From Thermobispora bispora DSM 43833 (GTDB lineage Bacteria > Actinomycetota > Actinomycetes > Streptosporangiales > Streptosporangiaceae), in NCBI RefSeq assembly GCF_000092645.1, contig NC_014165.1, positions 2,666,001 through 2,730,000 of the forward strand: 64,000 bases of DNA. Direction: 5' to 3'. The notes below the pieces were generated by a model. That model was not told where the DNA came from and made no database searches. It was given only the letters and a program-made list of their open reading frames with translations. The translations under genes and the position numbers were made by a program. Shown in pieces: positions 55,213 through 59,851 of this stretch; the first letter of the stretch is position 1, and every line of letters begins with the position of its first letter.

Positions 55213-56178
55213 TCAGTCCTCCCGGACCACCTCGTCCGGGCGCTTGTCCGCCCGGAGCCCGCGCCAGGAGGGGTGCCGCAGCCTGCCCTCACCGGTCCAC
55301 TCCGTGTACCGGACCTCGCCGACCAGCACCGGCTCGACCCAGCGGGCGTCGCGCACCTCCTCCCGCGGCGGTTCCTCGGCGAAGGGGTGGCCGCGCCGCT
55401 CGAGCGGCGCCAGCCGCTGCGCCAGGTCGCGCAGCGCGGCCTCGGTGAACCCCGTGCCGACGTGGCCCGCGTACCGCAGGCCGTCGGCCGTCTGGACCCC
55501 GACGAGCAGCGAGCCGATCGTCCCGCTCCGCCGGCCGCCGCCCGGCTTCCACCCGCACACGACCACGTCCTGGGTGCGGAAGTTCTTCACCTTCACCCAG
55601 TCGGGCGAGCGCCGGCCCGGCCGGTACGGCGAGGCGAGCCGCTTGGCCACCACCCCCTCCAGGCCGAGCCGGCGGGACTCCGCGACCGCGCGCGGGCCCG
55701 CGCCGTGGTAGCACGGGGGCACGTCCCAGCGCTCCCCGCCCCGCACGATCTCCTCCAGCAGCGCCCGGCGCTCCGCGTACGGCAGGCCGATCACCGGCGT
55801 GGCGTCGATGTGGAGCAGGTCGAAGAGCAGGTACGTCACGGGTGAGGTGACCGAGAGCCGGGCGACCCGCAGCGGGTCCCGCTGGTGGATCCTCGGCTGC
55901 AGCGCCTCGAACGACGGCCTCCCTTGCCGGTCGAAGGCGACGATCTCCCCGTCGAGCACCAGGTCGTGCCCGCCCACCGCGCCGGCGAGGCCGTGCGTCT
56001 CCGGGTAGGCGGCGGTGATGTCGAGCCCGTTGCGCGAGACCAGCCGAAGCCGGCCGTCCTCGATGTAGGCGAGCGCGCGGACGCCGTCCCACTTCATCTC
56101 GTGGGCGTACGCCTCGTCCGGCTCCGGCAGCGCACCCGGCCGCGCGAGCATGGGCGCGTAGGCGGGCAACCGGCCCAT
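55213..56178 (-). CDS. ATP-dependent DNA ligase (LigD/LigC ligase-domain type)
   Basis: This 321-residue ligase seals DNA nicks with ATP. The adenylated Lys lies in HEMKWDGVRAL, with further nucleotidyltransferase motifs VSRNGLDIT, LVLDGEIVAFD, LLFDLLHID, LEGVVAKR and WVKVKNF. A C-terminal OB-fold follows (~205-310, ending VRYTEWTGEGRLRHPSWRG LR-like sequence). It corresponds to the ligase domain of LigD without polymerase or nuclease domains; no ku gene is in view. It starts 18 bp after the subtilase gene on the same strand. Confidence 0.93.
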   Translation of the reverse strand: MGRLPAYAPMLARPGALPEPDEAYAHEMKWDGVRALAYIEDGRLRLVSRNGLDITAAYPETHGLAGAVGGHDLVLDGEIVAFDRQGRPSFEALQPRIHQRDPLRVARLSVTSPVTYLLFDLLHIDATPVIGLPYAERRALLEEIVRGGERWDVPPCYHGAGPRAVAESRRLGLEGVVAKRLASPYRPGRRSPDWVKVKNFRTQDVVVCGWKPGGGRRSGTIGSLLVGVQTADGLRYAGHVGTGFTEAALRDLAQRLAPLERRGHPFAEEPPREEVRDARWVEPVLVGEVRYTEWTGEGRLRHPSWRGLRADKRPDEVVRED

Positions 56179-56196: not shown

Positions 56197-58215
56197 TCAG
56201 TCGAGCAGGTCGGAGACCGGCTCGACCGGAAGCCCGGCGGCCTGCATCTCCTCGGCGAGCCAGCAGAGCGCGCTCAGCCCGTCCGGAACCGGGCCGGCCG
56301 AGCCCGGTGGCGCGCCCGCCGCCGCGCCGCGGGGCGCGGGCCCGCTACTGGATTCCGGCCCACCGGCCTGGGCCGCCGCACCGTTGACCGCCCCGGCCCC
56401 GGCGTGGCCGTACCGCCCCGGCGGCTGCGCCGCGGGGCCGGCGGCCGGGGCCGCCCCCGGCGTGCCCTGGCCCGCGGCGGGCGGGAGCAGGCCCGCGGTG
56501 ACCATCTCCGTGGTGAGCTGCTCGAGCAGGGTCGTGACCTCGCCCGGGTCCGGTGCGATGAGCGCGAGCGCGGGGGCGAGCGCGCGGAGCGCGTCCGGCA
56601 GCCCCGCGCCGGTGCGCCGGGCGTCGCCGAGGTCGATGGGCGTGCAGCTCGCCTTGATGATCTGGAAGAGGCGGTCGACCCGGCGGGCGTCCCGGGCGGC
56701 GAACGCGCCGTGGAAGTCGGGGTGGTGGGCGAGCACGAGCGCGGCGAGGCCCGCGACGTGCGGGGCGGCGGCCGAGGCGCCGTCCATCACCGCGTACCCG
56801 TCCGGCGGCACGCTGGAGAGGATCGCCACCCCGGGCGCGCACACGTCCACCTCCGGGCCGTGGCAGGCGAACTTCGGCGAGAAGTACCCGTCGGCCGTCC
56901 GCGGCTCCCGCAGCTCGGCCGCGTGCGCCGTACCGGGCGGGAACTCGCCGGTCTTGCCGATCGCGGTGACCGTGAGCACGGTGGGCAGGACGCCGGGGAA
57001 CCAGACCGGGCCGCCGTCGCTGCCCGCCGCCACCACGCAGGCCACGCCCGCGTTGCGCGCCTGGTCGATCTTCGCCGCCACGAGCTGGGACGGGTGGCGG
57101 CAGGCGAGGCCCAGGCTGACCACGTCGATCCCCTCACCGATGGCGTGGTCGAGGGCCTCGATCAGGTCGCTGAACCTGCCGCCGGGGAAGATCTTGCACA
57201 CGTGGACCTCGGCCTCGACGGCGAACCCCACGATGCCCCGGCCGTCGTCGGCGCCGGCGATGATCCCGGCGCAGTGGGAGCCGTGGCCCGCGCCGTCCGC
57301 CGTCCAGCCGTCCGGCCGGTCGCCGGTGAGGTCGAGCCCGGCGCGCACCCGGCCGGCCAGGTCGGGGTGGCCGGTGTCCGCCCCCGAGTCGATGATCGCG
57401 ATCTTCACCCCGGCCCCGCGGAGCGTGGGCGGCAGCCGGTCGAGGTTCATCGCCCGCTGGCCCCAGCCGAAGACCTGGGTGCCGGGGAAGCCGGGGATGG
57501 CGTCGGCCAGCGGGGTCAGCTCGACCAGGTTGTCCCGGTCGGTGGCGAGGGACGGCCGGTCGAGGTACGCGCTCCAGTGGCCGGCGCGGGGCTTCACCAC
57601 CACCCCGGTGACGGATTCCGGTGTCTCCCCGGTCATCGTCACCGTGGCCCGCCCGTCCGGCCCGGTGACCGCCTGGGCGGTCCAGGCGGCGCCGATCACG
57701 TAGACGACCGCCCCGGGCACGGGCCTGCCGCCGGCGCCCTTGACGAGGAAGGTGACGGTGAGCTCCGGGCCGGGCGGCAGGACCGCGGCGGAGGCGCGCC
57801 GCCGGCGGGGCGCCGCCTCGGCCAAGGCGAGCAGCCGGTCGCGCTCGATGTGGAGCTGGGGATGGCGCAGCCGCAGGGTGAGCGCGTGCTCGGGCGTCAT
57901 GTCGGCGACCACGATCGGCGGGAACGGCGCCCCGCCCGTGCAGAGCGTCCCCGCCCCGCCCGTGTCGCGCAGCCGGCGGCGCACCCGCACCTGCGGATCC
58001 TCCTCGAGCAGCCGCAGCAGGCCGGCGGCGTCCATGGCCGGGGCGGTCACCCCGCGCATGGCGAGGGACTGCTGCGGCAGCGCCGCCACCATGTACCGCC
58101 GGGGCCGGGGCTCCACCGGGCGCGGCGACTGCCGGGCCGCCTGCCTGGTCCGGCCCGCGGCGGCCGGGCGCGGCTCCTCTTTTCCGTCCTTGGGCTTGTC
58201 GTTGCTGGTCACCAC
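56197..58215 (-). CDS. Subtilisin-family (S8) serine protease, apparently cytoplasmic
   Basis: This 672-residue protein has a charged N-terminus with no signal peptide, a propeptide-like segment (~40-130, ending HPQLHIERDRLLAL), a carboxypeptidase-regulatory-like beta domain (~150-225), and an S8 domain (~260-535). The triad is Asp276 (IIDSGADTGHPD), His311 (GHGSHCAG) and Ser481 (DGASAAAPHVAG). The usual oxyanion Asn is Ser399 (AAGSDGG). A Gly/Ala/Pro-rich linker and short helical end (ALCWLAEEMQAAG) follow. The GTG at 58215 has GGGGAG eight bases upstream. It follows two low-complexity protein genes. Confidence 0.9.
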   Translation of the reverse strand: MVTSNDKPKDGKEEPRPAAAGRTRQAARQSPRPVEPRPRRYMVAALPQQSLAMRGVTAPAMDAAGLLRLLEEDPQVRVRRRLRDTGGAGTLCTGGAPFPPIVVADMTPEHALTLRLRHPQLHIERDRLLALAEAAPRRRRASAAVLPPGPELTVTFLVKGAGGRPVPGAVVYVIGAAWTAQAVTGPDGRATVTMTGETPESVTGVVVKPRAGHWSAYLDRPSLATDRDNLVELTPLADAIPGFPGTQVFGWGQRAMNLDRLPPTLRGAGVKIAIIDSGADTGHPDLAGRVRAGLDLTGDRPDGWTADGAGHGSHCAGIIAGADDGRGIVGFAVEAEVHVCKIFPGGRFSDLIEALDHAIGEGIDVVSLGLACRHPSQLVAAKIDQARNAGVACVVAAGSDGGPVWFPGVLPTVLTVTAIGKTGEFPPGTAHAAELREPRTADGYFSPKFACHGPEVDVCAPGVAILSSVPPDGYAVMDGASAAAPHVAGLAALVLAHHPDFHGAFAARDARRVDRLFQIIKASCTPIDLGDARRTGAGLPDALRALAPALALIAPDPGEVTTLLEQLTTEMVTAGLLPPAAGQGTPGAAPAAGPAAQPPGRYGHAGAGAVNGAAAQAGGPESSSGPAPRGAAAGAPPGSAGPVPDGLSALCWLAEEMQAAGLPVEPVSDLLD

Positions 58216-58413
58216 GTTCGACTCTCCCCAGCTCAGGCTGTGTCGGTGGGCGGGCCGGGCGGATGGATCGGCCGGGCGAGCCCGGGGCATCCGGCGCGGG
58301 TGGATCCCCCGGGGCTCGTGCGCGCCGCGCGATGCGGTGCGAGGCAGTGCGGGCGGCCGGGTACGGCGCGGGCCCGGACCGGCCGAGCACCGGTCCGGGC
58401 CGTCAGGATCGCG

Positions 58414-58776
58414 TCACCGAAGTGGAGCGGTCTGGCCGGCATTGATGGCACCGAGCACCGACTGGATGTGGGCGAGGCACGCCTCGTACTGCCCGTTCCG
58501 GTACAGCCGCACGCCCTGCACCAGCGACGGGATGACCCCCGCGACCTGCGGCCACTGCGGGAGCGACGCCCGCAGCCAGCCGTACAGGTGCCGGAGCGCC
58601 TCGGCGCACCGTACCTGCGGCGGAAGGAGCGGCCCCTGCTGTGCCGCGGCCGGCATCCCCATCCCGGCCGGGACCGCGCCCAGGGCAGGGGCGATCGCGA
58701 GGTTCACCGCCGGCGCCATGCCGGGTCCCCCCGAGGCCGGTCCCGGCAGGCCAGGTCCTCCACTCAGTGAGTTCAC
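58414..58776 (-). CDS. Small helical protein upstream of the subtilase
   Basis: This 120-residue protein is unrecognised. Residues 1-55 are Gly/Pro/Ala-rich (GGPGLPGPASGGPGMAPA). Residues ~65-120 look like a compact helical domain (CAEALRHLYGWLRASLPQWP; QGVRLYRNGQYEACLAHIQS). The end resembles the helical C-terminus of the subtilase in composition. A GGGGG sequence six bases before the GTG at 58776 supports the start; a GTG one codon upstream is possible. It starts 13 bp after the Ala/Gln-rich gene. Confidence 0.7.
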   Translation of the reverse strand: MNSLSGGPGLPGPASGGPGMAPAVNLAIAPALGAVPAGMGMPAAAQQGPLLPPQVRCAEALRHLYGWLRASLPQWPQVAGVIPSLVQGVRLYRNGQYEACLAHIQSVLGAINAGQTAPLR

Positions 58777-58789
58777 CACGCGCCCCCTG

Positions 58790-59662
58790 TCAGACCGCCG
58801 CCCCCGCGGCCGCCGGGACATGCGCGGCCTGGGGCTGGGCCATCGGGTACGCCTGGGCGGCCTGCGGCTGCGCGGCGTACGCGGCGGCGGCCCCCGGAGC
58901 GGCCGGGTGGGCCACGGCCTGCTGCGCCGCCTGCAGGGCGGCGAGCGCGGCCTGCTGCGGCTGAGCCGCGTAACCGGCGGCCGGCGCCATCTGCTGCGCG
59001 GCCATCGCCTGCGGCACGGCCTGGAGGGCGGGCTGGTACGCCAGAGCCGCCTGCGGCTGCGCGGCGTACGCGGCGGCGGCCCCCGGAGCGGCCGGCTGGG
59101 CCACGGCCTGCTGCGCCGCCTGCAGGGCGGCGAGCGCGGCCTGCTGCGGCTGAGCCGCGTAACCGGCGGCCGGCGCCATCTGCTGCGCGGCCATCGCCTG
59201 CGGCACGGCCTGCGGGATCTGCGCAGCGGCCGGGACCGGCGCGGGGGTCACCGCGTACGGCTGGCCCTGCGGGAGGGCGGCGGCGTACTGCTGGGCCTGC
59301 GGGACGGCGGCGGCGATCGGCTGGGCCTGCGGGACGGCGGCGGCGATCGGCTGGGCGCCGTTGGCCGGCCCGTTGATCGCCGGGGCCTGCTGGGACAGCA
59401 CCGCGTCGAGGACCTGCCGCGCGGCCGCGGCGCCGTAGCGCAGCCCCTGGCGGGCGAGCTTGTCCCAGAAGGTCACCGGGCTCACCAGGTGCTCCTGCGG
59501 GAGGATCTGGTCCTCTGGCGAGGTCACCGGGCCGTACGGGCTCATCTGCGGCAGCCCCAGCGGCTGAGCGATCTGCCGGCCGATGGGCTGCGGGGAGAGG
59601 TACTGAAGCGGATTGCTCAGAGCAGTAGCCGGATACGAGGCTTCCATAGCTGTGAACGTCAT
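58790..59662 (-). CDS. Ala/Gln/Pro-rich repeat protein
   Basis: This 290-residue protein is unrecognised. The first ~95 residues are of ordinary composition (SPEDQILPQEHLVSPVTFWD; RYGAAAARQVLDAVLSQQAP). The remainder is almost only Ala, Gln, Pro, Tyr, Met and Val, with QPIAAAVPQA units and two long copies of a ~54-residue block (AMAAQQMAPAAGYAAQPQQA...). No signal peptide or membrane helix is seen. GAAGGAG lies six bases before the ATG at 59662. It is the first gene of the array that includes the subtilase. The composition suggests a disordered, possibly self-associating protein or a protease substrate; this is inference. Confidence 0.8.
   Translation of the reverse strand: MTFTAMEASYPATALSNPLQYLSPQPIGRQIAQPLGLPQMSPYGPVTSPEDQILPQEHLVSPVTFWDKLARQGLRYGAAAARQVLDAVLSQQAPAINGPANGAQPIAAAVPQAQPIAAAVPQAQQYAAALPQGQPYAVTPAPVPAAAQIPQAVPQAMAAQQMAPAAGYAAQPQQAALAALQAAQQAVAQPAAPGAAAAYAAQPQAALAYQPALQAVPQAMAAQQMAPAAGYAAQPQQAALAALQAAQQAVAHPAAPGAAAAYAAQPQAAQAYPMAQPQAAHVPAAAGAAV
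58860..59212 (-). repeat. 163-bp direct repeat within the Ala/Gln-rich gene
   Basis: The block 58860-59023 recurs at 59049-59212 (offset 189 bp, 63 codons) with very few mismatches. One of them changes Gln to His. A perfect 30-bp tandem repeat (59291-59320, 59321-59350) lies in the same gene. Confidence 0.85.
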
Positions 59663-59851
59663 GGTCACTCCTTCGAGCCAGCCGTCTGGCTCATCGCCCA
59701 CAGTGATTACACAGCGTTATCTGTCCAAAACGCAACGTGATAGGCGTAATGGTGTGCTAAGCCCTGGTCTGTTCCTGGAAGGGGCGATCAGCTGGGGCTC
59801 GGCGGACGCGCGGGCCGGCCGGACGGCTGCGCGAGCGGGAGGAGGACCGGG

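What the first reader, a model, noticed from the sequence alone, without database searches (positions are those of the whole stretch)
56197..59662. Cytoplasmic subtilase encoded with an Ala/Gln-rich repeat protein and a small helical protein
Three leftward genes are arranged as Ala/Gln/Pro-rich repeat protein, 120-residue helical protein and S8 protease with propeptide-like and carboxypeptidase-regulatory-like domains. None shows a Sec signal or membrane helix, so protease and low-complexity proteins should meet in the cytoplasm. The first two genes are 13 bp apart; the subtilase follows after 198 bp. The repeat protein could be a substrate, scaffold or self-assembling polymer matured by the protease. 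I know of no described system with this set.
Basis: partly seen in the sequence, partly recalled or inferred. Interest (0 to 1): 0.72.

Follow-up and report, generated by a model that had tools for sequence, protein, structure and literature searches.

The report
Subtilase cassette with repeat-protein partner
A cytoplasmic subtilisin-type protease is always encoded next to a glutamine-rich repeat protein in unrelated bacteria, and in Streptomyces the protease has lost its catalytic residues yet both genes are kept, which points to an undescribed protein-assembly or protein-processing system.

Summary
The trio is real. A Gln/Ala/Pro-rich repeat protein (P1), a three-helix protein (P2) and a subtilase (P3: inhibitor-I9-like domain, beta-sandwich, S8 domain, two tail helices) lie in one leftward cassette. 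P1-P2 has a conserved promoter-like block, and a conserved inverted repeat, unique in this genome, separates P2 from P3.

The core is P1+P3. In all 80 loci with readable upstream DNA (Streptosporangiaceae, Streptomyces, an Arthrobacter MAG, Oxalobacteraceae, alphaproteobacteria) a P1-type ORF precedes P3. P2 is lineage-specific; most proteobacterial loci have a stand-alone I9-like gene instead, some loci have both. P2 is present exactly when P3 has the EM..AGL tail helix (28/28 versus 0/50).

All Streptomyces P3 copies found are pseudoproteases under purifying selection. Their P1 lacks the amphipathic or glycine-zipper module that P1 carries beside nearly every catalytically intact P3 (35 of 36 versus 0 of 44; two independent losses). 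P3 probably processes the P1 module where active and is a structural partner where dead. Proteolysis of P1 is inferred, not shown. No described system with this set was found in the papers and libraries searched. Neighbourhoods show no defence enrichment; the window proteins show no secretion signal.

The parts
59706..59751 (-). conserved upstream block: CATTACG (59745-59751), -35-like TTGCGT (59730-59735), 18-bp spacer, -10-like TGTAAT (59706-59711)
   Evidence: aligned in 19 loci of Thermobispora, Microbispora, Planotetraspora and Sphaerimonospora; reading it as a promoter is inference
58790..59662 (-). P1, Ala/Gln/Pro-rich repeat protein, 290 aa
59390..59491 (-). P1 module HLVSPVTFWDKLARQGLRYGAAAARQVLDAVLSQ (aa 58-91), the strongest amphipathic segment of P1
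   Evidence: module HMM E 1.4e-16 (this sequence is one of the HMM seeds); hydrophobic moment 0.68 versus 0.39 in shuffles
58837..59212 (-). two copies of a 187-nt direct repeat in P1 (58837-59023, 59026-59212; 96%)
58414..58776 (-). P2, 120 aa, disordered N-terminus and three-helix bundle (aa 53-115)
58373..58399 (-). perfect inverted repeat CCCGGACCGG-N7-CCGGTCCGGG in the P2-P3 gap, 14 bp after the P2 stop
   Evidence: unique in the 4.19-Mb genome; same place in Microbispora, Sphaerimonospora and one Planotetraspora, nowhere else in 127 loci
56197..58215 (-). P3, subtilase, 672 aa
57841..58101 (-). P3 inhibitor-I9/propeptide-like ferredoxin fold (aa 39-125)
   Evidence: AF2 strand/helix order; Foldseek best match 3whi pro-subtilisin E; stand-alone I9-like HMM hits this region
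57520..57765 (-). P3 beta-sandwich (Ig/carboxypeptidase-regulatory-like), aa 151-232
56566..57417 (-). P3 S8 domain, aa 267-550; Asp276, His311, Ser399 in place of the oxyanion Asn, Ser481
56497..56547 (-). P3 first tail helix, aa 557-573, with LEQLTTEMVTAGL
56239..56280 (-). P3 second tail helix, aa 646-659, with LCWLAEEMQAAGL, after a disordered linker

Best explanation
P1, P3 and a small accessory protein form one cytoplasmic unit. P1 is a multivalent, low-complexity repeat protein carrying one to several amphipathic or glycine-zipper modules. P3 is a subtilase held in check by its I9-like propeptide domain, by a stand-alone I9-like protein where one is encoded, and in the Thermobispora lineage by P2, which I propose binds the EM..AGL helices of the P3 tail. 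When released, P3 cleaves P1 at or next to its modules and changes P1's assembly state or frees the modules. In Streptomyces P3 has become a pseudoprotease and P1 has lost the modules; the two persist as a non-proteolytic complex. Shown: conservation and order of the genes, I9-like/sandwich/S8 architecture by prediction, loss of catalytic residues under purifying selection, and co-variation of P2 with the tail motif and of the P1 module with catalysis. Inferred: complex formation, inhibition by P2/I9, cleavage of P1, trigger and physiological role.
For: P1-P3 adjacency in all 80 loci with readable upstream sequence, across two phyla. Of 19 relatives tested for P3, it was found in exactly the ten with a convincing P2. 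P2 versus P3 tail motif 28/28 and 0/50. P1 module versus intact D-H-S 35/36 and 0/44, two independent losses. Stand-alone I9-like genes beside P3, homologous to P3's own N-terminal domain. AF2 model of P3 (pLDDT 82) whose best Foldseek match is unprocessed pro-subtilisin E. dN/dS 0.10-0.29 in the catalytically dead clade, like the active one. No TM or Sec segment in the window proteins.
Against: No biochemical evidence of any interaction or cleavage. The two co-variations rest on few independent events: two for module and catalysis (sign test not significant), about two for P2 and tail motif. In the window P3 the oxyanion Asn is Ser, which may weaken catalysis. Actinocorallia L059 has an intact triad but a P1 without a recognised module. 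Retention of P1 and P3 without catalysis shows that cleavage is not the only function.
Confidence: 0.4

Rival explanations
1. Scaffold or condensate: P1 is a prion-like, Gln-rich multivalent scaffold that self-assembles, P2 and P3 are clients, and proteolysis is secondary or turns the assembly off. The Streptomyces form shows the core function.
For: Pseudo-P3 plus Gln-rich P1 conserved under purifying selection in Streptomyces. Repeats, low complexity and disordered tails. One P3 tail carries a copy of the P1 module (L072).
Against: Catalysis and the P1 module were lost together, which a purely structural role does not explain. The catalytic triad is strictly kept in the proteobacterial and most Streptosporangiaceae copies.
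Confidence: 0.28
2. Protease-activated membrane-active peptides: P1 is a polyprotein of amphipathic or glycine-zipper peptides that P3 releases inside the cell, causing growth arrest or death (gasdermin-like logic), with P2 and I9 as safety catches.
For: Repeated glycine-zipper units in Oxalobacteraceae and Arthrobacter P1. Strong amphipathic moment in actinobacterial modules. Distant S8 relatives sit beside a small protein and a trypsin-NucA-like nuclease, resembling conflict 'System 3' of PMC7159879.
Against: No TM-strength segment in nearly all P1s. No defence-gene enrichment around the cassettes. No phage or viral homologues. The dead Streptomyces form would have no function.
Confidence: 0.2
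3. Exported two-peptide or glycine-zipper bacteriocin, like Caulobacter CdzC/CdzD, with P3 as leader protease.
For: Glycine-zipper modules in proteobacterial P1; Caulobacter contact-dependent killing uses glycine-zipper proteins (PMC5380434).
Against: No recurring exporter or immunity gene nearby and no signal sequence in the window proteins.
Confidence: 0.05
4. P1 is an incidental, slippage-prone reading frame and only P2-P3 or P3 alone matters.
For: P1 is low complexity and changes fast.
Against: P1-type ORF at every readable locus across phyla, conserved promoter-like block and start region, recurrent C-terminal signatures (PVxAGxG, GQPFGIG, QT[VLM]H).
Confidence: 0.04

Closest known systems
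Subtilases with inhibitor-I9 propeptide (pro-subtilisin, PDB 3whi)
   Same: S8 fold and an I9-like N-terminal domain that could inhibit in cis
   Different: a beta-sandwich lies between propeptide and protease; no signal peptide; tail helices; obligate repeat-protein neighbour
Stand-alone subtilisin propeptide-like inhibitors (for example the Plasmodium SUB1 inhibitor, PMC6993865)
   Same: separate propeptide-like protein that could inhibit in trans
   Different: here encoded beside its presumed protease in bacteria; inhibition not tested
Csp subtilases of Clostridioides (pseudoprotease CspC, PMC6636752)
   Same: bacterial subtilase family with functional pseudoprotease members
   Different: Csp proteins act in spore germination; NCBIfam Csp models score far below cut-off; no P1-type partner known to me
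Conflict 'System 3' (trypsin + S8 + NucA nuclease, PMC7159879)
   Same: a distantly related S8 protein lies beside a small protein and a trypsin-like/NucA-type protein in Rhizobium
   Different: no nuclease, trypsin or effector-associated domain in this cassette
T7SS mycosins (TIGR03921)
   Same: nearest NCBIfam model to the S8 domain
   Different: 107.5 bits against a cut-off of 278.75; no signal peptide or membrane anchor

Membership tests
Peptidase family S8 (subtilases) | S8 fold with Asp-His-Ser triad | tested here: met
   Pfam PF00082 7.6e-34; Asp276, His311, Ser481 present, oxyanion Asn replaced by Ser; fold match
I9-type propeptide | ferredoxin-like domain N-terminal to the protease | tested here: met
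   AF2 beta-alpha-beta x2 at 39-125 and pro-subtilisin match; no Pfam I9 hit by sequence, so membership is by predicted fold only
I9-type propeptide | inhibits its protease | not testable with these tools
   needs biochemistry
T7SS mycosin | TIGR03921 above the curated cut-off | tested here: not met
   107.5 versus 278.75 bits
Csp germination subtilases | Csp models above the curated cut-off | tested here: not met
   25 versus 1250 and 12.3 versus 675 bits
Known anti-phage defence systems (PADLOC) | specific match of cassette proteins or neighbourhood to a defence model | tested here: inconclusive
   only a generic 'subtilase' model and a weak IetS hit; neighbours not enriched
Conflict System 3 (trypsin/S8/NucA) | NucA nuclease and trypsin-like partner | tested here: not met
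   neither among the window proteins scanned around the cassette; neither among the 25 commonest Pfam families of 86 neighbours in 22 other loci
Protease plus pore-forming substrate systems (gasdermin-like) | cleaved partner that permeabilises membranes | not testable with these tools
   needs expression and cleavage assays

The most novel reading that the evidence does not exclude
A categorically new kind of bacterial system: a multivalent repeat protein whose modules are processed or organised by a dedicated cytoplasmic subtilase under control of trans-acting I9-like and three-helix adaptors, which in Streptomyces has been turned into a stable pseudoprotease-scaffold complex.
Probability: 0.4. 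Interest if true: 0.8.

Novelty: new variant of a known kind. Interest (0 to 1): 0.62.

Why it matters
It links a protease to one obligate repeat-protein partner across phyla and supplies a natural experiment: a clade in which the enzyme is dead but the pair is kept. That makes the question of what a protease fold does besides cleaving directly testable. It also names three families (P1, P2, stand-alone I9-like) that had no acceptable Pfam or PHROGs match in the members tested.

Tried and rejected
Secreted or T7SS protease: no signal peptide, mycosin model far below cut-off. Defence-island membership: 86 neighbours in 22 loci showed no recurrent defence family and no family in more than three members. 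Phage origin: no viral-contig or phage match to the N-terminal region. Known RNA element in the intergenic region: no Rfam match. The inverted repeat as a common generic terminator of this genome: its exact sequence occurs once. P2 as a known fold: no significant Foldseek match; VIA-align best Z 9.0, within the range of common helical bundles. A phylum-wide profile search found only the window, but few candidates were scored, so it says little. Family-wide and relatives-wide P3 searches failed technically. Weak P2 hits in more distant genomes, G110/L031 included, were not accepted as homologues. P1 module in P3 tails: convincing only in L072, not general.
Full report
WHAT IS THERE. The window lies in a 4,189,976-bp single-contig genome; from memory that length is Thermobispora bispora, which the relatives found (Streptosporangiaceae) fit. 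Three leftward genes are confirmed: P1 58790-59662 (290 aa), P2 58414-58776 (120 aa), P3 56197-58215 (672 aa). P1 is 33% Ala, 17% Gln and 13% Pro, with a 187-nt duplication. P1, P2 and the stand-alone small partner have no acceptable match in Pfam or PHROGs in the members tested, nor the window's P1 and P2 in NCBIfam (scattered low-E Pfam hits to repeat-containing P1s cover only short stretches and I take them as spurious). P3 carries Peptidase_S8.

ARCHITECTURE. AlphaFold of P3 (28-row alignment, pLDDT 82, pTM 0.78) gives a ferredoxin-like domain at 39-125, a beta-sandwich at 151-232, the S8 domain, a tail helix at 557-573, a disordered linker and a last helix at 646-659. Foldseek's best match is unprocessed pro-subtilisin E, 522 alignment columns, TM 0.85 by target. 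P2 is a three-helix bundle after a disordered N-terminus without a significant PDB match.

CONSERVATION. Among 149 relatives ten besides the window have P2 at E below 1e-5; all ten have a P3 homologue beside it, and P1-like repeat proteins lie upstream in the loci that extend far enough. Of the nine other relatives tested for P3, none had it; one of them, G110, has a weak P2 hit (2.2e-5) that I take as chance. A profile of the P3 N-terminal region then gave 80 loci in GTDB species genomes: Microbispora, Planotetraspora, Nonomuraea, Planobispora, Sphaerimonospora, Thermomonospora, Actinocorallia, many Streptomyces, an Arthrobacter MAG, Massilia, Noviherbaspirillum and other Oxalobacteraceae, Polynucleobacter, Rhodopseudomonas and Xanthobacteraceae. 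The list was cut at 80, so the true number is higher. In 199 Streptomyces genomes ten carry a close full-length copy (77% identity or more), so it is sporadic there. A P1-type ORF precedes P3 in all 80 loci with readable upstream DNA: the window, L030, 75 of the loci and three Streptomyces plasmid copies; in L054 the contig ends too soon. Q is 10% or more in 76 of these 80 P1s and in 6 of 658 other coding-like ORFs of the same loci; candidates were chosen partly by Q content, so this is a description and not an independent test.

VARIABLE PARTS. P2 is present in Streptosporangiaceae/Thermomonosporaceae and the Arthrobacter MAG, absent in Streptomyces and Proteobacteria. A stand-alone protein homologous to P3's own I9-like domain is encoded just upstream of P3 in most proteobacterial loci and, together with P2, in Nonomuraea, Planobispora, Actinocorallia and Arthrobacter. 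Every P3 with a P2 neighbour has the EM..AGL tail helix, and no P3 without P2 has it (28/28, 0/50). This suggests, without proving it, that P2 binds that helix; the pattern reflects about two independent events.

LOSS OF CATALYSIS. Of 78 P3 sequences, 32 keep Asp-His-Asn-Ser, five (window and four Planotetraspora) have Ser at the oxyanion position, and all 39 Streptomyces chromosomal copies lack the triad (Asp to Gly or Ala, His to Thr, Ser or Asn, Ser mostly to Gly; three retain the Ser but not Asp and His). L030 (D,G,D,G) and Thermomonospora L049 (D,R,D,S) are also degenerate. The Streptomyces plasmid copies keep Asp and His but have Thr or Ala for Ser (read by eye). The tree places Streptomyces, the plasmid copies and L030 in one clade and L049 apart, though long branches meet there. 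dN/dS in the dead clade is 0.10-0.29, within the range of the intact clades: these are maintained pseudoproteases.

P1 MODULES. Two module types were recognised by eye and made into HMMs: A, glycine-zipper (LAPQGWFGNLLGQVGQPLGGAIGGLFGN...), in Oxalobacteraceae and Arthrobacter; B, amphipathic (HLVSPxTFWxKxARxGxRYG...), in Streptosporangiaceae and alphaproteobacteria. L088 has both. A module is found in 35 of 36 P1s beside an intact triad and in 0 of 44 beside a degenerate one; one marginal hit each way was handled by hand (L066 E 0.028 not counted, L105 E 0.035 counted). The exception, Actinocorallia L059, has a related-looking shorter repeat. Only two independent losses underlie this; the sign test cannot reach significance. 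Several modules were the training material of the HMMs, so absence in Streptomyces is the informative part.

EXPRESSION SIGNALS. Upstream of P1 a block CATTACG...TTGYGY-N18-TGTAAT is conserved in 19 loci. After the P2 stop lies a perfect inverted repeat conserved nearly base for base in Thermobispora, Microbispora, Sphaerimonospora and one Planotetraspora; its exact pattern occurs once in this genome and only at this place in the 127 loci. It could be a terminator or attenuator that lowers P3 relative to P1-P2, or an operator; not decided.

CONTEXT. Neighbouring genes share no family in more than three of 86 members and show no defence enrichment. No phage or viral homologues of the N-terminal region. 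Distant S8 relatives on Rhizobium and Paracoccus plasmids are followed by a small protein, in Rhizobium also by a trypsin-like/endonuclease protein, like conflict System 3 (PMC7159879).

MECHANISM. The simplest account is that P3 acts on P1's module where active, under control of I9-like domains and P2, and that the Streptomyces pair has become non-proteolytic. Cleavage, inhibition and assembly are inferences. A pure scaffold role and a protease-released membrane peptide remain open.

LITERATURE. Seven full-text searches found no description of this set. The library lacks most subscription papers and preprints, so absence there is weak evidence.

Noticed in passing
58373-58399: Perfect inverted repeat, unique in the genome, conserved at the same place in related genera; terminator/attenuator or operator, undecided.
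   Followed up: partly
59706-59751: Conserved promoter-like block with an extra CATTACG element upstream of P1, a possible regulator site.
   Followed up: partly
L116 4812-8773: Rhizobium plasmid: distant S8 relative, small protein (80 aa) and a protein with trypsin-like and DNA/RNA non-specific endonuclease features in a row, like conflict System 3.
   Followed up: partly
L113, L114, L115: Streptomyces plasmid copies keep Asp and His but have Thr or Ala for the catalytic Ser, an apparent intermediate stage of catalytic loss.
   Followed up: partly
L098 6473-8827: The P3 reading frame begins with an I9-like domain matching the stand-alone HMM at 2.4e-27, followed by a second one; a fusion or a frame that runs through the upstream gene.
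   Followed up: no
L072 6845-8761, C-terminal end: P3 C-terminus carries LAPQAWFGALAGQ, a copy of the P1 module.
   Followed up: partly
55213-56178: ATP-dependent DNA ligase gene directly downstream of P3; a similar neighbour occurs in some relatives (L022, L033), probably vertical synteny.
   Followed up: no
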